Assembly: GCA_027026255.1 (NCBI GenBank)
Contig: JALVOT010000004.1
Span: forward strand, 103,061-167,060
Length of the DNA stretch: 64,000 bases
Source: Caldifarciminota bacterium
GTDB taxonomy: Bacteria > Hydrothermota > Tepidihabitantia > SM23-42
Direction of reading: 5' to 3'
The position numbers were made by a program, and so were the translations under genes. Under the pieces are notes generated by a model. It had not been told where the DNA came from. It made no database searches and saw only the letters and a list, made by a program, of their open reading frames with translations. Shown piece after piece: positions 23,567-43,955 of the stretch. Position 1 is the first letter of the stretch, and each line of letters begins with the position of its first letter.

Positions 23567-24886
23567 TTAATCTCCCGGGACATTCGTTTCTGTCAGCCAC
23601 CTCTCTAACCTTATGATGCAACTGCCATCTTTATCATATTTAGAAAGATGTTTTTTAAACTCATCGTAGGTAAGAATTCCGCCCCTGAAATCTTTATAGA
23701 TATCTTTAAGAAATTTCTCCCAGTTCTCATCACCGATAAGGTTGCGCACCCGGTCTAACACCCAGGGTCCTTTTCCGTAAATAACCATACCTTTTTCCCT
23801 TGTATTCGGGAAATCAACCTCGATTATGGGCACATCTTTATCTGTACCGGCAATCTTTTTATATGCATCCAGCCCTCTTTGCAATCCCTTATCAAACGCA
23901 TCCCTTCCCCCGGTTTGTTCAAGATACATAAGGCGCAGATAGTGCGGTAAAGATACCTCGAGAAACCAGAAGCCTTTACCAAAAAACTTAAAAAACACTC
24001 CCGCAGCAAACCACTGGGCTGCGATAGAAAAATGAAGCCCCCTATAATAACCTTTTTTGAATTCATCGATACTGGTTGACCCGAGCATTAAAAGGGCAGT
24101 TGCTATGTTAATTCCCTTCAGTCCAGGTATTTCTATCAATGTTAATCGGTTATGAGGATATTCTCCGATAAACCCGCTAAAGAATTTAAATATCCGGCAA
24201 GCTTCTGAGACAATCTTTTTCCCTGTTTTTTCATCAATTGTAGAAGAATAGAGATAAATCTTTTTGCCGTCTATCTCTTTAACGGTTTCTTTATAAATGC
24301 CGGTTTTTGTGACAATCAATGGTATTTTGAACACAGGGATTTTACTTTCCCAGATAAATTGGGAATACTCAGGGAATGTCTTTTCTTCAACCAAGTTACC
24401 AGCGGAAAAAACAACATAATCACAGGGCACTTCTGCGGTAAGCTTGAATCTGGCAATCTGGTCAAGGATGAGCGGATACCAGCGGTGTCCCCGGTCTAAA
24501 ATCATCAAATCTTCTGATTCACTGACCGGCAAAGTATACTCAAAATCTATGGTCAGCTCCTGGCTTGATGCCAATGCCGGGGGAATCGTTAAACGCAAAG
24601 TATCCTTTCCGGTAAAATCATAGGGGATATTAATCCATTTATGGTTCATTTTAGACCTTACAGAACGCACCTCTGCATCAGAAGTTAATAACATCTCAAA
24701 GCCCTTAATCATATCCGCCTTCTGCAATTCTATGCAAGCTGATACACTTAAACGGTTATCAGACATCCTCAGGTTTACCTTAATATTATAAGAAATCATC
24801 TCTATCCTGGACGTTTGACAAAATGCATTGTGAGACAGTAATATGAACAAAGTAAATATTATAATTTTTAAATTATTCCAGCACAT
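23567..24886 (-). CDS. Secreted M1-peptidase-like protein lacking catalytic residues
   Basis: A 439-residue protein with an N-terminal signal peptide (IIIFTLFILLSHNAFCQ). The order of domains resembles an M1 (gluzincin) aminopeptidase. A beta-rich N-terminal domain is followed by a helical region. The expected HExxH site aligns with residues 285-292, which read HFSIAAQW, so the catalytic glutamate and at least one histidine are missing. The GxMEN substrate motif reads GLKGINIA. A non-enzymatic secreted protein is likely. Its upstream region is an attC-like site, and its 5' end is duplicated at 27397-27463. Confidence 0.7.
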   Translation of the reverse strand: MCWNNLKIIIFTLFILLSHNAFCQTSRIEMISYNIKVNLRMSDNRLSVSACIELQKADMIKGFEMLLTSDAEVRSVRSKMNHKWINIPYDFTGKDTLRLTIPPALASSQELTIDFEYTLPVSESEDLMILDRGHRWYPLILDQIARFKLTAEVPCDYVVFSAGNLVEEKTFPEYSQFIWESKIPVFKIPLIVTKTGIYKETVKEIDGKKIYLYSSTIDEKTGKKIVSEACRIFKFFSGFIGEYPHNRLTLIEIPGLKGINIATALLMLGSTSIDEFKKGYYRGLHFSIAAQWFAAGVFFKFFGKGFWFLEVSLPHYLRLMYLEQTGGRDAFDKGLQRGLDAYKKIAGTDKDVPIIEVDFPNTREKGMVIYGKGPWVLDRVRNLIGDENWEKFLKDIYKDFRGGILTYDEFKKHLSKYDKDGSCIIRLERWLTETNVPGD

Positions 24887-24907
24887 ATATCCTCTTTATA
24901 AAATTTC

Positions 24908-24989
24908 GTTTAACGTGTTGCGGATAAACGAAGGTTTGCGAAGCAAACTTTGGACGAGCGTAAGCGAGTCGTTTATCCGCTTGTTAAGT
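24908..24989 (-). repeat. attC-like recombination site 1 (82 bp)
   Basis: On the minus strand the outer boxes are ACTTAAC and GTTAAAC, fitting RYYYAAC and GTTRRRY. The inner arms are GCGGATAAACGA and TCGTTTATCCGC, a 12 bp perfect inverted pair, with two further small hairpins in the centre. It lies directly after the 25048-26265 gene and before the M1-like gene, as expected for the tail of an integron cassette. Confidence 0.75.
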
Positions 24990-25047: not shown

Positions 25048-26265
25048 TCATCTTAGTCCCCCTCTACATATTCCCTTACTAACACCTTCTTTAATAATAC
25101 AATCATCCTCTTTACATTTGGCGATATAACCACAACTTAATAAAGCTACAGGACAATATTTGTTTTTTGTCGGAATACAAATAAAATCAACGCCATTGTT
25201 CCCGAAAAGACAAACATTACATAATTTTTTATTGCACATTCTAGGAACAAAATCAAAGGTAATATCAAATTGTTCTGGATAAAAATCTTTAACTCTGTCC
25301 TTTACTTCGTTGTCACTTTTTAATTGTTCATAAACATCTCTAATAATTTTGGGCATATTCCAAGTTTTGGAAATGCTATTAAGATCTAACACATCCGCAA
25401 ATAAGTTATTCCTGAATAAAGGGCTGTTATTCCAGACATCACCAGGTAGTTCTATTTGATTCATAAGTGGCTTCTTCCATATATTGATTAATTTTTTTAC
25501 ATTATTATTGAGCACCACTTCCTTTATGGCGTTGTTAAATATCTCATGATATAACCCTTTTTTATAATCTCTAAGGCAACACCATAATCTCTTTTTCCCG
25601 TTTGTAGAAGTCCTTTTAAATTCCTTGAGTTTTTCTTCAAATTCCGCATCGTCTTTTAGAATTTGTATAATTTTATCAGGAATCGCCTTCTTTTTCTTTC
25701 CGTCAAGTTGATAAGTTAATAAATGTAAAGTACATGCTACTCTTATAAGAAGATCGCCTTTCCCCTCAAATCTTTGAATAAAATGCAAAATGAAAGCAAT
25801 AATATTTCGTTTATGTTTTTTCCCATTTATGGCTATTTCGTACTTATCCAAAATTTCTAAAGTTTGGAGTATGTTTTGATAATCATCGGTTACATATCTG
25901 GATGCAAAGGTAATATTGTTAGTTTTAGATTTAAATCTGAATCGTTCTTTGCCCTTCTTATCTTGATATTTTTCATAATGTTCTTTAAGACTTTCCTCCG
26001 GAGATTTTTTATTCCTTAAATATTCATATACCAACTCAGAAAAGACATATCCTCCTTTATCCCAAACAATTTCAAATGGCATTTGTCTATCTGTAATATA
26101 ACAAATCCAATGTGTGAGAATTTTTTCACAGTTAGTTAAATCATTTCTAAAGAAGTTTACAAAGTTATAGTTATCTTCTGTATCCCATCTCCGTGTATCC
26201 AACCAAGAAATTGTTTTGAAAATTCTAAAAAGTAAATCTTTGTTTTCTATTTTTACCTTACTCAT
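25048..26265 (-). CDS. Hypothetical cassette protein with C-terminal Cys-rich region
   Basis: A 405-residue protein that I do not recognise. The N-terminal two thirds are helical and basic. The C-terminal 70 residues contain nine cysteines (CNKKLCNVC, then CIPTKNKYCPVALLSCGYIA, then KCKEDDC and a last CRGG), suggesting one or two metal centres, perhaps an Fe-S cluster as in radical SAM SPASM-like tails; that is inference. Codon use is AT-rich. It is flanked by attC-like sites at 24908 and 26289 and is the second of two cassettes. Its start is 29 bases after the cassette boundary. Confidence 0.6.
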   Translation of the reverse strand: MSKVKIENKDLLFRIFKTISWLDTRRWDTEDNYNFVNFFRNDLTNCEKILTHWICYITDRQMPFEIVWDKGGYVFSELVYEYLRNKKSPEESLKEHYEKYQDKKGKERFRFKSKTNNITFASRYVTDDYQNILQTLEILDKYEIAINGKKHKRNIIAFILHFIQRFEGKGDLLIRVACTLHLLTYQLDGKKKKAIPDKIIQILKDDAEFEEKLKEFKRTSTNGKKRLWCCLRDYKKGLYHEIFNNAIKEVVLNNNVKKLINIWKKPLMNQIELPGDVWNNSPLFRNNLFADVLDLNSISKTWNMPKIIRDVYEQLKSDNEVKDRVKDFYPEQFDITFDFVPRMCNKKLCNVCLFGNNGVDFICIPTKNKYCPVALLSCGYIAKCKEDDCIIKEGVSKGICRGGLR

Positions 26266-26288: not shown

Positions 26289-26375
26289 ACTTAACGTTTG
26301 GCGGGTATCTGAAGTCGCCAAAGGCAATTTAGGTTAAGGCTCTGCAAGAGCCGAACCTCATATCCACTGTTAAGT
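26289..26375 (-). repeat. attC-like recombination site 2 (87 bp)
   Basis: On the minus strand the outer boxes are ACTTAAC and GTTAAGT, perfect complements. Inside them are imperfect arms (GTGGATATGAGG and CAGATACCCGCC) and a central hairpin GGCTCTTGCAGAGCC. It follows the 26435-26920 gene. The predicted exchange point (G/TT) is at 26295/26294, and the next cassette begins TTAAGTGAAATCGT. Confidence 0.78.
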
Positions 26376-26434: not shown

Positions 26435-26920
26435 TTATTCTTCATCTTCAACTGGAAGAATAGTCGCTAAATCTTTTTCGACATCAATTCCATAAGTAAC
26501 GGCAATTTTTGCTATATGAATCCCGAAAACGCCTCGTAATTCTCCTACAGAACCATTAAATTCCCAGCTTGCCCAATGCCCTCTATTTGCACCATATCTG
26601 ATTATATCTCCATTTCTCATTCCAGTTTTATCGAGAAATTTTCTGCAAGCTGCACGCATAGCTTTTAGAGATTTTGCCAATTCAGTGTCCTCTGAAATCT
26701 TTCCTATTGTTGATGTAAGAAATTTTCTTATTTTTAAGACTGAATCTACGCAATGCTGAGGCACTTCCATTTCAGAAGGGTTATATAATACTCGTCTATC
26801 TTCTAGAAATATAATCACTTCTTTGGCAAAATCTCTCTCTGTGTTTTCGGGATTCCAAGAGACTCCAAAAATTGGAGAGCTAATCCCTGTAATACGTTTA
26901 ATGATTTTTTTGAATTTCAT
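26435..26920 (-). CDS. DUF6650-like cassette protein
   Basis: A 161-residue protein. It resembles from memory the DUF6650 family (ITGISSPIFGVSWNPENTER, then FLEDRRVLYNP, then AMRAACRKFLD, then GHWASWEFNGSVGELRG), which is of unknown function and often found in accessory DNA. It is the first cassette after an attI-like junction. The cassette begins TTAAGTGAAATCGT at 26979, 59 bases before the ATG. That beginning complements the first box of its own attC, as expected of a cassette inserted by site-specific recombination. Confidence 0.7.
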   Translation of the reverse strand: MKFKKIIKRITGISSPIFGVSWNPENTERDFAKEVIIFLEDRRVLYNPSEMEVPQHCVDSVLKIRKFLTSTIGKISEDTELAKSLKAMRAACRKFLDKTGMRNGDIIRYGANRGHWASWEFNGSVGELRGVFGIHIAKIAVTYGIDVEKDLATILPVEDEE

Positions 26921-27026
26921 AATGTTGAAAAAGATATTAGTTTATATAAATTTTCCGTCCAGACTACGATTTCACTTAATAGGAGTATATGCGAACTATT
27001 TAGTATATTTATCCCTCTATTTGGAA

Positions 27027-27278
27027 TCATGTTTCCTTTTCCATAATATTATCCAGTGGATTTTTTATTTTTGTAAGGCTTGTTTTGCTACCATACGTAT
27101 AAATTTCTGTCGTTTTTGAACTTTTATGCCCTGAAAGTTCCTGAATATATCTTACATCTGTTCCAGCTTCTAAAGAAATCTGGATTATAACCCTGTTATT
27201 TCTTCCCAGTTCAGCCTTTACAGCAAAGATTTTGCCCGCCTGTGCAGGTAAGTATTTTGCCGTCTTCTCAACAATCAT
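27027..27278 (-). pseudogene. Truncated tyrosine recombinase (C-terminal remnant), copy 1
   Basis: An 83-codon frame. Residues about 37-80 match the C-terminal end of integron/Xer-type tyrosine recombinases (EAGTDVRYIQELSGHKSSKT, then TEIYTY and KIKNPLD). The catalytic tyrosine and the preceding GH histidine are kept. The upstream HxxR box and everything N-terminal to it are missing, and the first 30 residues look like joined fragments. It cannot be an active enzyme alone. It may be maintained as a leader for the downstream cassettes. Confidence 0.75.
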
Positions 27279-27333
27279 TATTTTTAAATCCTTTTTAATT
27301 CATCAGGATTTATTGTTGTTAACCACATATATT

Positions 27334-27361
27334 AATATATAATAAAAAACCAAAAAGTCAA
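27334..27361 (-). promoter_or_regulatory. Candidate cassette promoter, copy 1
   Basis: On the minus strand there is TTGACT (27361-27356), a 16 bp spacer and TATATT (27339-27334), reading through the recombinase remnant toward the two cassette genes. It is conserved in the second platform copy. Confidence 0.65.
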
Positions 27362-27369
27362 GTTGATTT

Positions 27370-27457
27370 TTAAAAATTTTTTTCTTTCAAGGAAGGCATT
27401 CTCAGTCCAGCTATTAATAAAGTAAATATTATGATTTTTAAATTATTCCAACGCATA
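27370..27457 (-). pseudogene. Duplicated 5' fragment of the M1-like gene
   Basis: The ribosome-binding region and first codons (MRWNNLKIIIFTLL) match the start of the gene at 24886 (MCWNNLKIIIFTLF) at DNA level over about 50 bp (27410-27463). The frame then diverges and stops after 28 codons. It follows an attC-like site just as the intact gene does. This suggests a tandem duplication of the platform that cut the gene. Confidence 0.75.
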
Positions 27458-27467
27458 TATCCTCCCT

Positions 27468-27597
27468 TATAACGGTTACGTGTATGAGTAGTGGCGGGAT
27501 TTCCCGCACTTTTGTCCATTATTGCACTATTGTTGATATTACTCATATTGTTCATTTTTAGCATTTTGCCCGCCATTACTTATACACAATGTTAGGT
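27468..27597 (-). repeat. attC-like recombination site 3 (130 bp)
   Basis: On the minus strand the first box is ACCTAAC. The arms are TGTGTATAAGTAATGGCGGG and CCCGCCACTACTCATACAC, and the last box is GTTATAA (one mismatch to GTTRRRY). A long central segment holds a further hairpin. It lies 5 bases after the methyltransferase gene, as the tail of the four-gene defence-like block. Confidence 0.65.
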
Positions 27598-27602
27598 GTA
27601 GA

Positions 27603-28868
27603 TTATTTTTTTTCAAGTATTATTACACTTTCTCTTAATGTTTTAATATCAGGGCTATATTTAGTTTTTCTTTTACGTATGTTTCTTAAAACACCTATTT
27701 CTTTTAAATACCAGCCATTTTTTGTAGCAATATCAGATAAAATTAAATCTACCGGTATTTCTTCATTTGCGTATGCAGAGTTAGATACAATCATCCATAA
27801 ATGAGCGTTTTTGTTTGAATGTTTACTTAAAGCACCAAATATCAATTTCATATCCTCAAAATATGCTAAAATCATTTGTGGGATTCTAGGATGCATTAAT
27901 AATTCTTTATTTTTTGATAAACGTTTAAAAACATCATTGAGTAGAATACTGTCTAATTCACTTACATTTGGAAGTTTCCATTTTACTTGTATGTGAGACC
28001 GTATTGTCTTCAATCGTAATTGGGATAAAGCTTCTGAATTTAAAATGAATTTTCCAAGAAATAATTCTGGCCTATAAATATCTGTATAATCAAAAGTGTT
28101 TAAATAAGGTGGAGACGTAATAATTAAATCAAATTTGCCATTTTTGTTATTATTTAAAGCATTTCGTGTATCTGAATTATATATTATAGGTTGATTTTTA
28201 ATTTTACTACTTTCTATATCTTGCTCAATCTTAATATAATTAGAAATAAATGCCTTAATAAAATCATTTTTATTATATTGTATTTTTTGCCATTTCGTTT
28301 TATACCGCAAACATTTACCATCTTTTTTAGCATTTGCCACTTCCATTACTGAGGTAAGCAATACAAGTTTAATTAAATCCGATGCATTTGATTTAATTTT
28401 TTCTACAAAACTGTAACCACCATAAAAAGCTCTTAAAACTTCAAGATTAAAAAGCCATTTCTTTTTATTCGAAAGTTCTGTAAATGTTGAATATTTTTCT
28501 AACTCTGGAAATTCCTTCCCTATATTTATTTTCTCATAGGTTTTCTCAAAAAGTTCAGACAATACTTTTTTCTTAGTATTTAGGGCTTTCGTTTTTGAAA
28601 CAAATGCTGTAAAAGGATTTACTTCGATTCCAACTGATCTAATATTATTTTCGGAAGCTGTGAGAGTCACTGTTCCACTGCCATTAAAAGGGTCTAATAC
28701 TAATTGATTAGGTTTTATTTCATATGTTTCGATGGCTTCTTTAACTAAACTTGGTGAAAATCCTTCTTTGTAATAATACCAGCGATGTCGTGGCAATTGG
28801 CTTGCCTCAATAAAATTAGAAAAATCTTTGTCTTTTAATTTAAAACTATTGTTAATAACTGAATTCAT
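27603..28868 (-). CDS. Site-specific DNA methyltransferase (N4/N6 type)
   Basis: A 421-residue amino-methyltransferase. The S-adenosylmethionine motif LDPFNGSGTV is at residues 58-67 and the catalytic TSPPY at 251-255, typical of N6-adenine or N4-cytosine enzymes. The N-terminal PRHRWYYYKEGFSPSLVKEA also fits this group. It is the last gene of a four-gene operon with a nuclease and an SMC-like ATPase. It probably marks self DNA, though a purely regulatory methyltransferase is possible. AT-rich composition sets the operon apart from flanking genes. Confidence 0.88.
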   Translation of the reverse strand: MNSVINNSFKLKDKDFSNFIEASQLPRHRWYYYKEGFSPSLVKEAIETYEIKPNQLVLDPFNGSGTVTLTASENNIRSVGIEVNPFTAFVSKTKALNTKKKVLSELFEKTYEKINIGKEFPELEKYSTFTELSNKKKWLFNLEVLRAFYGGYSFVEKIKSNASDLIKLVLLTSVMEVANAKKDGKCLRYKTKWQKIQYNKNDFIKAFISNYIKIEQDIESSKIKNQPIIYNSDTRNALNNNKNGKFDLIITSPPYLNTFDYTDIYRPELFLGKFILNSEALSQLRLKTIRSHIQVKWKLPNVSELDSILLNDVFKRLSKNKELLMHPRIPQMILAYFEDMKLIFGALSKHSNKNAHLWMIVSNSAYANEEIPVDLILSDIATKNGWYLKEIGVLRNIRKRKTKYSPDIKTLRESVIILEKK

Positions 28869-28871
28869 AAA

Positions 28872-29936
28872 TTAATCACAAATTGGTTCAACAAACATTC
28901 TTATAGGTTTTTCAATTTCTGGATAACTTTCCCAATATTTTTTGTCATCTTTAATATTCAATTCTTTGTTTTGATAAAAGTATCCATCAGTTCTTGAAAT
29001 CGAAGTAACTTTTAAAGATGAAATATTTCTTCTTCTAACATCAATAACAATAAGATATCCTTTAGTAATTGTTGTTGGATTATCTGATCTATTCAAGTCT
29101 ATATATTCTTTAATTTGTTTCATACCATCATTCACGCGTTTATTAGAATACTTCGTGCCTAACGTTCCATCTTCCTTCAATGATTGTCCCATCCACTTTA
29201 ATTCTATTAGGGCAGCTCTATTGGCTTCTCTCCAATAAACCCTAACATCAACCGGTTTACTTGCGCCAAGATTAAATTCCCTGTCAACATTTATACCTCT
29301 TACTCTACTTTTTAAAAATTCCGAAAGTGATATTTGCATACAAGTTTCTGGTTTATTTTTTAAATAAATCCATTTTTTGTCAGCCCAACACTTTTTTAAG
29401 TGTTCACAAGAGACATTTCTTACACGTTCTATTTTATAATCTTGTAAAGCTTCATACAGATAATGGTATTGTAAAGCAAAAATACTTGGGCAACTGTAAT
29501 TATTTTTAATTTCAATTTTTTTTCTATTCACAATAAAATATTCTATTTGTTTATTACCATCAAAAAGATAAGCAATAAATCCATCTTCTTTATTTAATAA
29601 ATCTTTAATTTCTTGCTCGATTACATTCATCCAGTATAAAGGTAAATTTTGCTCATCTTCTTGTAGCTTAATAACAATATTTGAGGAAGTACCACTAAGA
29701 ATTGCTTTATCATATAGCTCTTCTTTTTCAATATTTTTGAAATCGAAGGAGTTTGAAAAATCAAAAAATATAATAAGTTGACCATTAAAGTGACTAGGTT
29801 CTATATGCCTAAAAACTTCTTTTACAAGTTCGATTATTTTTTTAGTTTTATCTGTATAATTCCTATCTTTTGTCAGCTCAAATATTTCGAGCAGATAATT
29901 TTCTTTTCTTACTTTTTCAACTAGTCTATCTGTCAT
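28872..29936 (-). CDS. Predicted PD-(D/E)XK nuclease of the defence-like operon
   Basis: A 354-residue protein. The C-terminal part shows a PD-(D/E)XK pattern: E220, then D230 in KPVDVRV, then E245-L-K247 in AALIELKWM, and a following conserved-glutamine helix GMKQIKEYI (Q274). The first 200 residues are not recognisable and may sense or bind partners. It lies 3 bases before the methyltransferase gene and 5 bases after the small middle gene. It is probably the effector that cuts DNA. The catalytic call is from visible motif only. Confidence 0.72.
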   Translation of the reverse strand: MTDRLVEKVRKENYLLEIFELTKDRNYTDKTKKIIELVKEVFRHIEPSHFNGQLIIFFDFSNSFDFKNIEKEELYDKAILSGTSSNIVIKLQEDEQNLPLYWMNVIEQEIKDLLNKEDGFIAYLFDGNKQIEYFIVNRKKIEIKNNYSCPSIFALQYHYLYEALQDYKIERVRNVSCEHLKKCWADKKWIYLKNKPETCMQISLSEFLKSRVRGINVDREFNLGASKPVDVRVYWREANRAALIELKWMGQSLKEDGTLGTKYSNKRVNDGMKQIKEYIDLNRSDNPTTITKGYLIVIDVRRRNISSLKVTSISRTDGYFYQNKELNIKDDKKYWESYPEIEKPIRMFVEPICD

Positions 29937-29941
29937 AATTA

Positions 29942-30523
29942 TTAATCTTCTTTTAATTCATTTTTTAAAAGATAATCAATCCAAGAAATAGCTGGCAGTA
30001 AGAGTTCATCAGCGGGAGCTCCTAATTCTTTAGTAATTTCTTTTAGTTTAACATTGGAAAATTCAATCCAATCTTGATTTTTAAGTTTTGATGCTTTAAT
30101 TAAATTAGGGTCATTAAGTAGAGCCTTAATCGTTTCTTTATAAGGAATTAATACGCTTGTAGAGCATGCAGCATCTATAAACTCTTCTCTTTTTTTATTT
30201 CGTACTTGCCTTCTAAACTTATAAAATTCGTCGGTTCCTCTACCTGTAATAATCATAAAGTTTTCAGTATCTTCAAAATATCCATTTTTTATGTTTCGTT
30301 CAATTGCATCATTTAGCTCTCTTGAATGTGGATATTTATCTGATCCTATAACAAATTTATATTTCCAATCACTCACAGGATTTCCAGCATAATGAAAAAG
30401 GATTGCCGAGAAATAAGCAAAAAGATGTATTTCTCTTTGCTCAAATCCATCAAGAAAGTTATCTAATTTATGAGCAATTGATAAACTATCAAAATAGGCT
30501 TCTGGTAAAATTTGTTTATTCAT
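29942..30523 (-). CDS. Small middle component of the defence-like operon
   Basis: A 193-residue, largely helical protein without a named motif. Its place between an SMC-like ATPase and an effector nuclease is that of the middle component (LmuC or ABC-3C MC) in Lamassu-type systems. That assignment rests on size and position, not on sequence. It overlaps the ATPase gene by 8 bases. Confidence 0.6.
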   Translation of the reverse strand: MNKQILPEAYFDSLSIAHKLDNFLDGFEQREIHLFAYFSAILFHYAGNPVSDWKYKFVIGSDKYPHSRELNDAIERNIKNGYFEDTENFMIITGRGTDEFYKFRRQVRNKKREEFIDAACSTSVLIPYKETIKALLNDPNLIKASKLKNQDWIEFSNVKLKEITKELGAPADELLLPAISWIDYLLKNELKED

Positions 30524-32522
30524 TATCTTTCCTATTTAAAATTTTTTCAATGTTATGATATACCTTTTCAAAGAGATGTTCTCCTTCCCTCTGAATCTCT
30601 GTTAAATCAGTCCAATTAAGCATTCGCCGAAATCTCATTTTTTCTTTACCGCATTTCTCAGCCAATGAAATAAGTAATTGTGAAGCATTTATATTTGCAG
30701 TCATTATTATGTTTTGATCATAATCTATTACAAAATCAGCAAACATTTTTCCAACTCTACTTTCATAAGCAATATCCAGAGAACCTTCCGGCGTATCAAT
30801 TAATAATGTAGCCTCATTGTCTGGTTTCGATAAATATACTGCTAATGCCATTCTTAAAGCAATATCAAGAAAAAACCTTTGACTTTCAGACACCTGATGC
30901 GATTCTGTTCTTGCTGATCCTAAAAGCTCAAAATTAAGTGCAATATCTTTACTCCCTTTTTGTTGGAAATTTATATTTAAATCTAAACCGATAAAACTTT
31001 TTGCAAATTTTTTAAATAATGGCACAAAAATACCTTCTGCTTCTTTATAAGCATTATTTACTTTTTGTATTAAATTCTCGTATTCAGGTTTAATTTTATC
31101 TCTCTTTTTATAATAATCCTTAGCTTTTTTATCTTCTTTTTTAAAGCGTTCTATGTATGATTCAAGGATACCATCAGTTATAATATCTCCGGTTTTTTTA
31201 AAATCTATATGTGAATTGATTTTTACAAATTTTTCAAGCTTTTCTTTTGCGGAAAAATAATCGTATTCAGCTTTTTCAAGTTCTACCTTTTTAGCGTCAG
31301 TTTCAAAAATAAGATTTTCAATCTCTTGATTCTTTTTCTCAATCAATCGGTCTATATTTTCCAGTTGGGACAATAATTCTTTTTGTTCTTTGGTTTTTTT
31401 ATTTTTATCGTTGATTATGGTGCCACAAACAGGGCATTTATCTTGATATAATTTTTTTTCAATGTTTTCAACAACTTTATGTCCGGTTGCTCCACATAAA
31501 AAACATTTATTTTCTTTTTTTGAATAACTTATATATTTGTTATTCAGCAATTTAGAACGTGGTTCTGAATATTGGGAAAAAAGTTTTTTATACTTTGTTT
31601 TTAATTGTAATATTTCAGAACTAATTATGTTTTGCCTTTTTAGTAGTGTGTCGTATTCAACTTCTATATTGTGGTATAACTTTTCCAAATTATCAACATT
31701 AATAGATAATTGATCATATTCTTTTTTTAGTTCATCAAAATTTGTTAGCTCTTTTTCTTTTTTAGTTGCCAAAAGTCTTTCGTATTCTTTCTTAATTTGA
31801 GTTGCTTGCCATCTGGCGTTTCTACCATAAGATTCTAATGTTTCCATTCCTCTCTTTAACTCTATAATCCGATTTGTATCATTTAAGTCATAATTAAAAG
31901 CAATAGAAAGAGCGTTTGTAGAAGCACGGTCATTCCAAAAAATCATTCGCCTATTCTCATCAAAAGTTAATATGTACAATTGAAAGAATACGAAATATTC
32001 AAATTTTCCAATTCCAATATCAGCAGTTATTCTTTGTTCATAGAGAACATTTAATTCATTTGGACTTTTTTTATTTGTGTCAATTAAAGAGATAGCTTTA
32101 TTCTGCTCAATTTTATATATTTCAAGTTTTCGTAAAGAATCTCTATCAGTAAATCCACGTATAATTCGATATTTATTGTTATTTACAGTAAAAAACAGTT
32201 CTACTTCTGCATTTTCTTTATCACTTGCCTTTATTCTACCTTCGAAATACCTTTCGGTATATCTCTTGTTTAACTTTACGATTTCACTTGGTGAATAGAC
32301 TTCTTTGTTAGGTTCTAAAACTAATCCAGTTAAAGCATAATTGATTATATTTAAGAAAGTTGTTTTTCCCAATCCGTTTGCACCGGCAAGACAATAAACC
32401 CCATTATTAATATCTTCATCTATAATCTGAACAACATTATTTTTTGTATATAGAGAAAAGTTCCTAATAATGACTTTTTCTATTTTAATAAAATTATATT
32501 TACCTTTAATTCTCATTGTCAT
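30516..32522 (-). CDS. SMC/Rad50-like ABC ATPase of the defence-like operon
   Basis: A 668-residue ATPase. Walker A is GANGLGKTT (residues 47-55), the ABC signature region SESQRFFLDIALRMA starts at 545, and Walker B TLLIDTPEGSLD starts at 572. Between are coiled-coil helices interrupted at 340-366 by two CxxC pairs (CFLC, CPVC), which would form an intrachain zinc finger rather than the single CxxC hook of Rad50. The architecture fits LmuB/ABC-3C ATPases. It is the first gene of the four-gene operon; the leader from the platform repeat is about 75 bases. Confidence 0.85.
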   Translation of the reverse strand: MTMRIKGKYNFIKIEKVIIRNFSLYTKNNVVQIIDEDINNGVYCLAGANGLGKTTFLNIINYALTGLVLEPNKEVYSPSEIVKLNKRYTERYFEGRIKASDKENAEVELFFTVNNNKYRIIRGFTDRDSLRKLEIYKIEQNKAISLIDTNKKSPNELNVLYEQRITADIGIGKFEYFVFFQLYILTFDENRRMIFWNDRASTNALSIAFNYDLNDTNRIIELKRGMETLESYGRNARWQATQIKKEYERLLATKKEKELTNFDELKKEYDQLSINVDNLEKLYHNIEVEYDTLLKRQNIISSEILQLKTKYKKLFSQYSEPRSKLLNNKYISYSKKENKCFLCGATGHKVVENIEKKLYQDKCPVCGTIINDKNKKTKEQKELLSQLENIDRLIEKKNQEIENLIFETDAKKVELEKAEYDYFSAKEKLEKFVKINSHIDFKKTGDIITDGILESYIERFKKEDKKAKDYYKKRDKIKPEYENLIQKVNNAYKEAEGIFVPLFKKFAKSFIGLDLNINFQQKGSKDIALNFELLGSARTESHQVSESQRFFLDIALRMALAVYLSKPDNEATLLIDTPEGSLDIAYESRVGKMFADFVIDYDQNIIMTANINASQLLISLAEKCGKEKMRFRRMLNWTDLTEIQREGEHLFEKVYHNIEKILNRKDNE

Positions 32523-32645
32523 TCCTATTTTTCTTGTTGTTCGTCAAATTTACGCCCAACTCATCCATATACACAACATTGCGTATATACCTCCAAATTA
32601 GGATTATATGCGAACTATTTCGTATATTTATCCCTCTGTTTAAAA

Positions 32646-32897
32646 TCATGTTTCCTTCTCCATAATATTATCCAGTGGATTTTTTATTTTTGTAAGGCTT
32701 GCTTTACTTACATACGTATAAATCTCTGTCGTCTTTGAACTCTTATGCCCTGAAAGTTCCTGAATATATCTTACATCTGTTCCAGCTTCTAAAGGAAGCT
32801 GGATTATAACCCTGTTATTTCTTCCCGATTCAGCCTTTACAGCAAAGATTTTGCCCGCCTGTGCAGGTAAGTATTTTGCCGTCTTCTCAACAATCAT
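32646..32897 (-). pseudogene. Truncated tyrosine recombinase (C-terminal remnant), copy 2
   Basis: An 83-codon frame from ATG 32897, nearly the same as copy 1 (LEAGTDVRYIQELSGHKSSK, then TEIYTYVSKA). The tyrosine box is kept and the HxxR box is lost. Both copies have kept an open frame of equal length despite several substitutions, which is notable for dead sequence. Confidence 0.75.
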
Positions 32898-32952
32898 TAT
32901 TTTCAATTCCTTTTTAATTCATCAGGATTTATTGTTGTTAACCACATATATT

Positions 32953-32980
32953 AATATATAACAAAAAACCAAAATGTCAA
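32953..32980 (-). promoter_or_regulatory. Candidate cassette promoter, copy 2
   Basis: On the minus strand there is TTGACA (32980-32975), a 16 bp spacer and TATATT (32958-32953), reading through the recombinase remnant toward the SMC-nuclease-methyltransferase operon. Confidence 0.65.
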
Positions 32981-33161
32981 GTTGATTATTTTTTCCTTAT
33001 GCGGATAGGCTGGAAAGATATTTTGAAAGGGTTTGAAACAACCATCAAAACGGCTTCTTAAATTTTATTATCTTTTTGTATAACATCTTGTATTTGTGTA
33101 TAATAAGAAATTTTTCCTCTCAATTAACACCTGAAATTTCATTAAATTTATAAGGTCTATC

Positions 33162-40648: not shown

Positions 40649-40669
40649 GCTTTGTTTATAAATAAAAAA

Positions 40670-40786
<117 letters not shown>

Positions 40787-40824
40787 AATAATATATTGAA
40801 ATTTTAAGAAGATGGCGGAAGGAA

Positions 40825-43955
<3,131 letters not shown>

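What the first reader, a model, noticed from the sequence alone, without database searches (positions are those of the whole stretch)
27603..32522. Four-gene SMC ATPase, middle protein, PD-(D/E)XK nuclease and DNA methyltransferase operon
The gene order ATPase, small middle protein, nuclease matches Lamassu/ABC-three-component defence systems, here with a DNA methyltransferase fused into the same operon. Directly seen: Walker A/B and signature in the ATPase, D230 and E245-x-K247 in the nuclease, DPFNGSGT and TSPPY in the methyltransferase, gaps of 3-5 bases or overlap, and AT-rich composition. Inference: a modification-aware Lamassu-like system in which methylation protects self DNA and the SMC-like sensor releases the nuclease. 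I do not know of this exact four-gene combination as a named system.
Basis: partly seen in the sequence, partly recalled or inferred. Interest (0 to 1): 0.88.

Follow-up and report, generated by a model that had tools for sequence, protein, structure and literature searches.

The report
Four-gene SMC, nuclease and methyltransferase system
A set of four neighbouring genes (a DNA-handling SMC-type ATPase, a small adaptor, a DNA-cutting enzyme and a DNA-marking enzyme) recurs across bacteria and archaea and looks like a little-known kind of restriction-modification defence, in which marked DNA is probably recognised as self.

Summary
In detail: four tight genes on the minus strand at 27603-32522 encode an SMC/Rad50-type ATPase, a small middle protein, a PD-(D/E)XK nuclease and a DNA methyltransferase. 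The set is conserved. Eight of 8 viral contigs and both plasmids found by the ATPase also carry a methyltransferase.
Nuclease D/E/K residues are invariant in 28 of 28 and the model has the PD-(D/E)XK fold. The middle protein models as a winged helix. The ATPase has Thr at the usual catalytic Glu position (27 of 27).
ATPase, middle protein and nuclease co-evolve (rank correlation 0.84-0.91); the methyltransferase follows them less (0.46-0.54, still above chance) and seems to have been exchanged while its slot stayed filled. That fits a generic SMC-nuclease machine with an interchangeable self-marking enzyme better than a plain type II pair. Defence and methyl sensing are inferred.
It differs from Lamassu in gene order, effector domain order and Walker B. 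New variant of a known kind. Here it may sit in an integron-like array.

The parts
30516..32522 (-). SMC/Rad50-type ABC ATPase, 668 aa, two CxxC pairs (zinc hook), Walker B IDTPEGSLD (Thr at the usual catalytic Glu position)
   Evidence: LmuB PDLC03859 E 7.4e-24; AAA_23
29942..30523 (-). Middle component, 193 aa, models as a winged-helix protein
   Evidence: pLDDT 91.9; winged-helix regulators Z 6-7; best 7yk3_B Z 10.9 over 138 residues
28872..29936 (-). Effector, 354 aa: N-terminal half without firm assignment, C-terminal PD-(D/E)XK nuclease (E220, D230, E245-x-K247)
   Evidence: pLDDT 91.0; BamHI Z 8.7, EndoMS-like 8.4, McrBC 8.1
27603..28868 (-). Amino-type DNA methyltransferase, 421 aa, motif I DPFNGSGT, motif IV TSPPY (N4-cytosine is a guess from SPPY)
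   Evidence: MTase_II PDLC03224 E 1e-60; N6_N4_Mtase
32599..32998 (-). Flanking repeat copy 2 (378 of 400 aligned bases identical to copy 1) holding a C-terminal tyrosine-recombinase remnant
26980..27386 (-). Flanking repeat copy 1, same recombinase remnant
27463..27592 (-). Weak attC-like imperfect inverted repeat after the methyltransferase (ACCTAAC ... GTTATAA; second box not canonical)
   Evidence: seen by eye; fold -31.7 kcal/mol with RNA parameters, no control. Against: not found by the strict motif scan, and the DNA-parameter fold of 27440-27605 is no better than shuffles (z -0.88)

Best explanation
A four-component, restriction-modification-like anti-invader system. The methyltransferase marks host DNA (perhaps N4-methylcytosine). 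The SMC-type ATPase with its zinc hook and the winged-helix middle protein form a DNA-engaging switch that holds the PD-(D/E)XK nuclease and releases or directs it on DNA that lacks the mark, such as incoming phage or plasmid DNA. Because the usual catalytic Glu of Walker B is replaced, the ATPase probably acts as a slow, switch-like clamp rather than a fast motor. The methyltransferase is an exchangeable module, so the mark, or the methyltransferase itself as a specificity subunit, sets which sites count as self, while the triad is generic. Shown: the genes, their conserved linkage, conserved residues, predicted folds, and tree conflict between methyltransferase and triad. Inferred: complex formation, methyl sensing, cleavage and defence.
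For: 25 of 30 loci recovered by ATPase similarity alone hold all four genes (one of the 25, L016, is the contig of a member of the query profile). 8 of 8 IMG/VR loci recovered by the ATPase have a methyltransferase hit, and so do both plasmid loci. In the 25 the methyltransferase lies in four arrangements (16 downstream same strand, 3 upstream same strand, 5 divergent, 1 convergent), so linkage was kept through rearrangement. Nuclease D230, E245, K247 in 28 of 28; ATPase K53, SESQ, TPE and D583 in 27 of 27; methyltransferase SPPY in 26 of 26. PD-(D/E)XK fold. ATPase, middle and nuclease distances correlate at 0.84-0.91, the methyltransferase with any of them at 0.46-0.54 (26 loci); AU tests on the methyltransferase reject two groupings of the ATPase tree (p 1.3e-64, 1.2e-36). 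Some neighbours match defence or transposon families.
Against: No experiment. Methyltransferase relatives also occur without the triad: 10 of 18 viral-contig loci (some end at contig edges), and 22 of 24 genomes of the phylum with a methyltransferase hit show no nuclease or middle gene beside it in loci with about 1.5 kb flanks. One triad (L034, truncated ATPase) lacks a methyltransferase. Methyltransferase distances still correlate with the triad above chance (0-1 of 1000 permutations), so part of its history is shared. The two AU groups have unstarred support in the ATPase tree (90/93 and 94/90) and were chosen after both trees had been seen. Nothing shows that the ATPase or nuclease senses methylation. 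The defence reading rests on distant LmuB similarity and neighbours.
Confidence: 0.55

Rival explanations
1. A Lamassu-like abortive-infection triad: the ATPase senses DNA ends or replication structures of invaders and unleashes the nuclease on all DNA; the methyltransferase is a safety catch or an accessory with another role.
For: ATPase best matches LmuB profiles (26 of 27 members match PDLC03859), with similar size and zinc hook; replacement of the usual catalytic Glu parallels the Glu-to-Gln change reported for LmuB (PMC10586767, section 9 read). The middle component's best fold match is a chain of the DarTG toxin-antitoxin complex, a faint hint at an inhibitor role.
Against: Lamassu is described as usually three components ('methyl' occurs 0 times in that review); here a methyltransferase is in the set in 25 of 30 loci.
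Confidence: 0.22
2. A type II restriction-modification pair (nuclease and methyltransferase with the same target) whose nuclease is regulated by an SMC-type ATPase and a winged-helix protein.
For: Methyltransferase matches the type II set (PDLC03224, 26 of 26); the nuclease fold is that of restriction enzymes among others.
Against: Nuclease and methyltransferase distances correlate weakly (0.46) and the trees conflict, which a matched-specificity pair could hardly survive; specificity itself was not tested.
Confidence: 0.13
3. A housekeeping DNA-repair or replication module, not defence.
For: Weak ATPase matches to SbcC and Rad50 models; nuclease resembles an EndoMS-like enzyme.
Against: Patchy: a nuclease hit in 2 of 147 genomes of the phylum; copies on plasmids and in contigs of a viral collection; AT-rich stretch between repeats with recombinase remnants.
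Confidence: 0.05

Closest known systems
Lamassu (LmuA-LmuC-LmuB)
   Same: Three of the four parts in kind: SMC-like ATPase of about 650 aa with zinc hook, small middle protein, nuclease effector.
   Different: Order ATPase-middle-effector instead of effector-middle-ATPase (one LmuB locus read, L072); nuclease domain C-terminal, not N-terminal; Walker B DTPE, not DQP; added methyltransferase; no convincing BLAST kinship to that LmuB (best E 0.007).
CxC ABC ATPase-DndE systems (PbeABCD and relatives, PMC10853773)
   Same: Coiled-coil ABC ATPase, DNA-binding partner, nuclease, sometimes cytosine methylases in the neighbourhood; modular recruitment of modification enzymes (passages read).
   Different: Those have a DndE partner with two ribbon-helix-helix domains and an HKD-helicase nuclease; here the partner models as a winged helix and the nuclease is PD-(D/E)XK.
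MADS (methylation-associated defence)
   Same: Weak matches of the ATPase to mad3 (26 of 27) and mad8 (7 of 27) and of the methyltransferase to mad2 (19 of 26).
   Different: Middle and nuclease proteins match no MADS model; that MADS has eight genes is recalled, and no MADS paper was found in the library.
Type II restriction-modification
   Same: PD-(D/E)XK nuclease beside an amino-methyltransferase.
   Different: Linked SMC-type ATPase and middle protein; nuclease distances follow these more than the methyltransferase.

Membership tests
Lamassu | LmuB: SMC-like ATPase about 650 aa with zinc hook | tested here: inconclusive
   PDLC03859 E 7.4e-24 and 26 of 27 members match; CxxC cysteines in 22-24 of 27; but 82.9 bits against 432 and 408 for the two best hits of the phylum, and apart from 6 LmuB-profile hits in the tree (97/95, long branches)
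Lamassu | Walker B with Glu to Gln in LmuB (said of LmuB generally in PMC10586767) | tested here: not met
   Thr in 27 of 27; L072 has DQPSQVYFP
Lamassu | LmuA: effector domain N-terminal, docking part C-terminal | tested here: not met
   PD-(D/E)XK matches span residues about 159-351 of 354
Lamassu | LmuC/LmuA profile match | tested here: inconclusive
   No PADLOC Lamassu hit for 28 nucleases or 28 middle proteins at E 0.01; whether the library models all such parts was not checked
Lamassu | Protection against phage or plasmid | not testable with these tools
   needs experiment
Type II restriction-modification | Amino-methyltransferase of the type II set | tested here: met
   MTase_II PDLC03224, 26 of 26
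Type II restriction-modification | Cognate nuclease of matched specificity | tested here: inconclusive
   Only a proxy was tested: Spearman of distances 0.46 (1 of 1000 permutations as high) against 0.85 with the ATPase; tree conflict
PD-(D/E)XK nuclease | Fold and D...ExK residues | tested here: met
Dnd/CxC ABC ATPase systems | DndE partner (two ribbon-helix-helix domains) | tested here: inconclusive
   Middle protein models as a winged helix and matches no DndE or Pbe model at E 0.01
MADS | Full mad gene set | tested here: not met
   Four genes only, with weak mad2, mad3 and mad8 matches for two of them and none for the other two; the full set is recalled
ABC-three-component (ABC-3C) | Middle component of a described ABC-3C family | tested here: inconclusive
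   0 of 28 middle proteins match a Pfam ABC-3C family at E 0.1; that Pfam holds such families is recalled; defining paper not held

The most novel reading that the evidence does not exclude
An SMC-gated restriction-modification type: a generic Rad50-like clamp, winged-helix adaptor and nuclease read the presence or absence of a methyl mark laid by whichever methyltransferase occupies the fourth slot, a distinct R-M architecture found in bacteria and archaea.
Probability: 0.35. Interest if true: 0.82.

Novelty: new variant of a known kind. Interest (0 to 1): 0.62.

Why it matters
SMC-type defence (Lamassu, Wadjet) is thought to recognise DNA shape, size or ends; restriction-modification recognises marks. 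A conserved system that joins both would show how an SMC machine can be told what is self, and would make that testable with four genes. It also adds a nuclease family and a middle-protein family without a good match in PADLOC 2.0.0, so scans with that library would see only parts of the system.

Tried and rejected
Single-sequence searches for the nuclease in plasmids, phages and IMG/VR found nothing, nor did the ATPase in IMG/VR; profiles were needed. PDB sequence searches with the nuclease gave none. An E. coli search with the Pseudomonas ATPase DNA found none. A nuclease-profile scan of IMG/VR found one locus, already known.

A diadenylate-cyclase (DAC/DisA) fold for the N-terminal half of the nuclease was considered: most of the Foldseek top 50 rows are DAC proteins (best E 2e-3, probability 0.99), but that output does not say which model residues align, the VIA second look shows no DAC entry among its 50 rows, and profile comparison with 25 DAC proteins of the phylum gave no match (the first runs there carried an extra option, the last used the default). 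I leave it as a lead.

The DarTG match of the middle protein (Z 10.9) stands above the next rows (Z 7.0), but the tool warns that helical models often reach such Z by a common arrangement, so I draw no function from it.

The idea that the two flanking repeats belong to a recurrent mobile element was tested: two matches in the genome, both at this place. No empty site was found: only one flanking gene was used as the query, and in 22 other genomes of the family it has at most weak matches (29% identity or less).

Rows dropped before counts: alignments A5-A8 leave out L011, L012, L036 and the plasmid and duplicate copies L001-L006; the ATPase alignment also leaves out the truncated L034, and the methyltransferase alignment L021 and L034, which have none. 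The tree leaves out 12 loci that repeat others and rows under 110 bits or 330 aa. Nuclease starts were chosen near the stop of the middle gene, so the short spacing there is partly by construction. The neighbour scan took 67 of the 158 listed ORFs of 17 loci, picked by hand as mostly the nearest; each table showed the first 25 families only.
Full report
What is there. Four ORFs on the minus strand form one tight operon: ATPase 30516-32522, middle protein 29942-30523, nuclease 28872-29936, methyltransferase 27603-28868, with an 8-nt overlap and gaps of 5 and 3 nt. Their G+C is 27-29% in a window of 40.3%. The window is contig C4:103061-167060 of a 2.1 Mb genome. I take the phylum to be WOR-3: the same-class genome G116 holds a 7953-base contig whose length and gene positions equal those of a public contig titled candidate division WOR-3 (L003, L006 and L016).

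Families. The ATPase matches AAA_23 and, distantly, LmuB (PDLC03859, E 7.4e-24), with weaker PbeC, mad3 and DndD matches. The methyltransferase matches MTase_II (E 1e-60) and N6_N4_Mtase. The window's nuclease has no PADLOC, Pfam or NCBIfam hit at E 0.01 and its middle protein only a weak WH_III-A hit in PADLOC. Over the family, 6 of 28 nucleases touch PDDEXK_9 (best E 6e-5), none of 28 matches a PADLOC nuclease or Lamassu effector (one touches an MTase_II model at E 0.009), and middle proteins match almost nothing (2 of 28 WH_III-A, 1 PDC-S15; seven single weak Pfam hits).

Conserved linkage. In the phylum 2 of 147 genomes have a nuclease match, the window's own and G116, which has the same gene order at 34% nuclease identity. 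Searching their ORFs with profiles of all four proteins showed all four genes in 25; one of these, L016, is the G116 contig. The other five: L011 and L021 end at the contig edge before the methyltransferase slot; L012 is a collapsed remnant that still holds a 29-residue piece of methyltransferase; L034 has a truncated ATPase and no methyltransferase in its flanks; L036 is not a member. Record titles name Bacteroidota, Actinomycetota, Pseudomonadota, Bacillota, Armatimonadota, Kiritimatiellota, Melainabacteria and two archaea, many as metagenome bins. In IMG/VR the ATPase profile gave 8 loci, all with a methyltransferase hit, in one case a fragment at the contig edge; two (L065, L066) have identical profile scores and look like near-copies; the nuclease profile found nothing in L071 and the middle profile nothing in L069 and L070. 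Both plasmids found, Burkholderia and Azospirillum, carry ATPase, middle protein and methyltransferase; the Azospirillum ATPase is split into two frames and its third gene is not matched by the nuclease profile. In L032 and L004 a second ATPase and middle protein lie on the other side of a single methyltransferase (the L004 and L032 second middle hits are weak, about 28 bits); in L032 this second set ends in a further ORF with PD-(D/E)XK-like residues, judged by eye.

Arrangement. In the 27 loci measured the order is ATPase-middle-nuclease. Median spacings are -4 nt and -1 nt, with start codons partly chosen for closeness. Among the 25 loci the methyltransferase is downstream on the same strand in 16, upstream on the same strand in 3, divergent upstream in 5 and convergent downstream in 1.

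Residues and folds. Nuclease D230, E245 and K247 are in 28 of 28 and E220 in 27 of 28. The AlphaFold2 model (28 sequences) has mean pLDDT 91.0. VIA aligns its C-terminal half to BamHI (Z 8.7, rmsd 3.7, 144 residues), an EndoMS-like endonuclease (8.4, 3.0, 104) and McrBC (8.1, 3.8, 129), and most of its 50 rows are titled as nucleases. Z near 8 is modest, and Foldseek gave no PDB match at E 0.001, but the fold agrees with the invariant residues. The middle protein (pLDDT 91.9) aligns with winged-helix regulators over about residues 5-110 (Z 6-7) and best with a chain of the DarTG complex (Z 10.9, rmsd 3.8, 138 residues); for helical models such a Z may mean little. In the ATPase the signature SESQ and the residues T577, P578, E579 and D583 are in 27 of 27, with D or E at 576; Thr stands where ABC ATPases usually have the catalytic Glu (position recalled from general knowledge). 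The four CxxC cysteines are kept in 22-24 of 27 each. Methyltransferase SPPY is in 26 of 26; that SPPY points to N4-cytosine is recalled, and the nearest solved relatives include both adenine and cytosine-N4 enzymes.

Co-evolution. Over the 26 loci with all four rows, pairwise distances correlate at 0.91 (ATPase-middle), 0.85 (ATPase-nuclease) and 0.84 (nuclease-middle), but 0.50, 0.46 and 0.54 for the methyltransferase with ATPase, nuclease and middle; all six exceed nearly every one of 1000 permutations, so the methyltransferase is not free of the triad's history. In the methyltransferase tree (37 linked and 33 unlinked rows) linked ones fall in one group of 33 (99/95), with two unlinked rows inside (L053, at a contig end; L057, beside another ATPase), plus a second group of four. 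The unlinked rows come only from IMG/VR and this phylum. In the ATPase tree L025, L026 and L051 sit near L015 and L017-L019 (90/93), while their methyltransferases group with those of other Pseudomonadota; L049 shows the opposite pattern (94/90). AU tests on the methyltransferase reject the two ATPase groupings (p 1.3e-64 and 1.2e-36); I chose the groups after seeing both trees, so the p values are not those of a blind test. I read this as a slot that is kept while its occupant changes.

Controls. Methyltransferases of this wider family are common without the triad: 10 of 18 viral loci, some at contig edges, and in the phylum 24 of 147 genomes have a hit but only the window's genome and G116 show nuclease and middle gene beside it, in loci with about 1.5 kb flanks. 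LmuB-profile hits occur in 74 of 147 genomes, a count that includes ordinary long SMC proteins and rings in 13 of 14 control genomes, so that profile alone proves little. A true LmuB (L072) lies in the order effector-middle-ATPase, has Walker B DQPSQVYFP and shows no convincing BLAST kinship to the window ATPase (best E 0.007).

Setting. The operon is flanked by two copies of a 400-base repeat (378 of 400 aligned bases identical) holding a remnant of a tyrosine recombinase whose best NCBIfam match is the integron integrase model, far below its cut-off (39.5 and 34.8 bits against 265); these are the two matches found in the genome. attC-like sites were first seen by eye. The one at 24908-24989 scores 12 against at most 8 in ten Markov controls; the one at 26289-26375 has exact boxes but a stem score of 3.5, within the controls; the one after the operon is not found by the strict scan and as DNA folds no better than shuffles. 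A 53-base start of the downstream gene is repeated after the operon. An integron-like cassette array is my inference, well supported at one site only. Among 67 nearby ORFs in 17 other loci, PADLOC hits among the first 25 of 40 families include SoFic (2), PDC-S04 (2), and one each of PDC-S02, SduA, DrmD, TniQ and MTase_II; PHROG hits among the first 25 of 34 include transposases and an integrase.

How it works. I favour an R-M-like system: the methyltransferase marks self, and the ATPase with the middle protein restrains and triggers the nuclease on unmarked DNA. Matched type II specificity looks less likely, because the nuclease follows the ATPase more than the methyltransferase. Abortive infection without methyl sensing remains possible. 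No function has been measured.

Literature. I read section 9 and passages of PMC10586767 and passages of PMC10853773, PMC12839542, PMC8565338 and one reference-list passage of PMC12707154. Searches for Lamassu, ABC-3C, SMC-like and ABC ATPase with methyltransferase terms returned no or few papers, and none that I could recognise from title and start of abstract as describing this four-gene set (12 of 15 listed). Krishnan et al. 2020, the likeliest place of an earlier notice, is not held and was not read here, so an earlier mention is not excluded.

Check of this report. Against the first version I softened the integron reading, told the permutation result, the choice of AU groups and the profile misses, and moved two membership rows to inconclusive.

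Noticed in passing
window 24908-24989, 26289-26375, 27463-27592: Three attC-like sites after successive gene units in a candidate-phylum genome, with integrase remnants in two 400-base repeats; only the first stands out from controls. If the operon is a cassette, at 5 kb and four genes it would be a large one.
   Followed up: partly
window 26435-26920: Cassette-like gene of the DUF6650 family (E 5e-26), function unknown.
   Followed up: no
window 25048-26265: 405-aa ORF with no match at E 0.01 in PADLOC, Pfam or NCBIfam, 30% G+C, followed by the best attC-like site.
   Followed up: no
window 24842-24894 and 27412-27464: 53-base duplicate (91%) of the start of the downstream gene, placed after the operon, as if two versions of the array had been joined.
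   Followed up: partly
L032 5957-16123: Two ATPase-middle-effector sets flank one methyltransferase; a second ATPase and middle protein also lie beside the L004 (Burkholderia) set.
   Followed up: partly
L057 9932-15368: Related methyltransferase on an IMG/VR contig with a lysozyme-like gene, next to an 849-aa ORF with two Walker-type ATPase stretches instead of the SMC set, judged by eye.
   Followed up: no
G134:C47 19144-26990: LmuB-profile ATPase (808-aa frame) about 3.4 kb from two tandem methyltransferase hits; its locus L088 is not matched by this family's profiles.
   Followed up: no
window 40669-43952: 23S and 5S rRNA genes.
   Followed up: no
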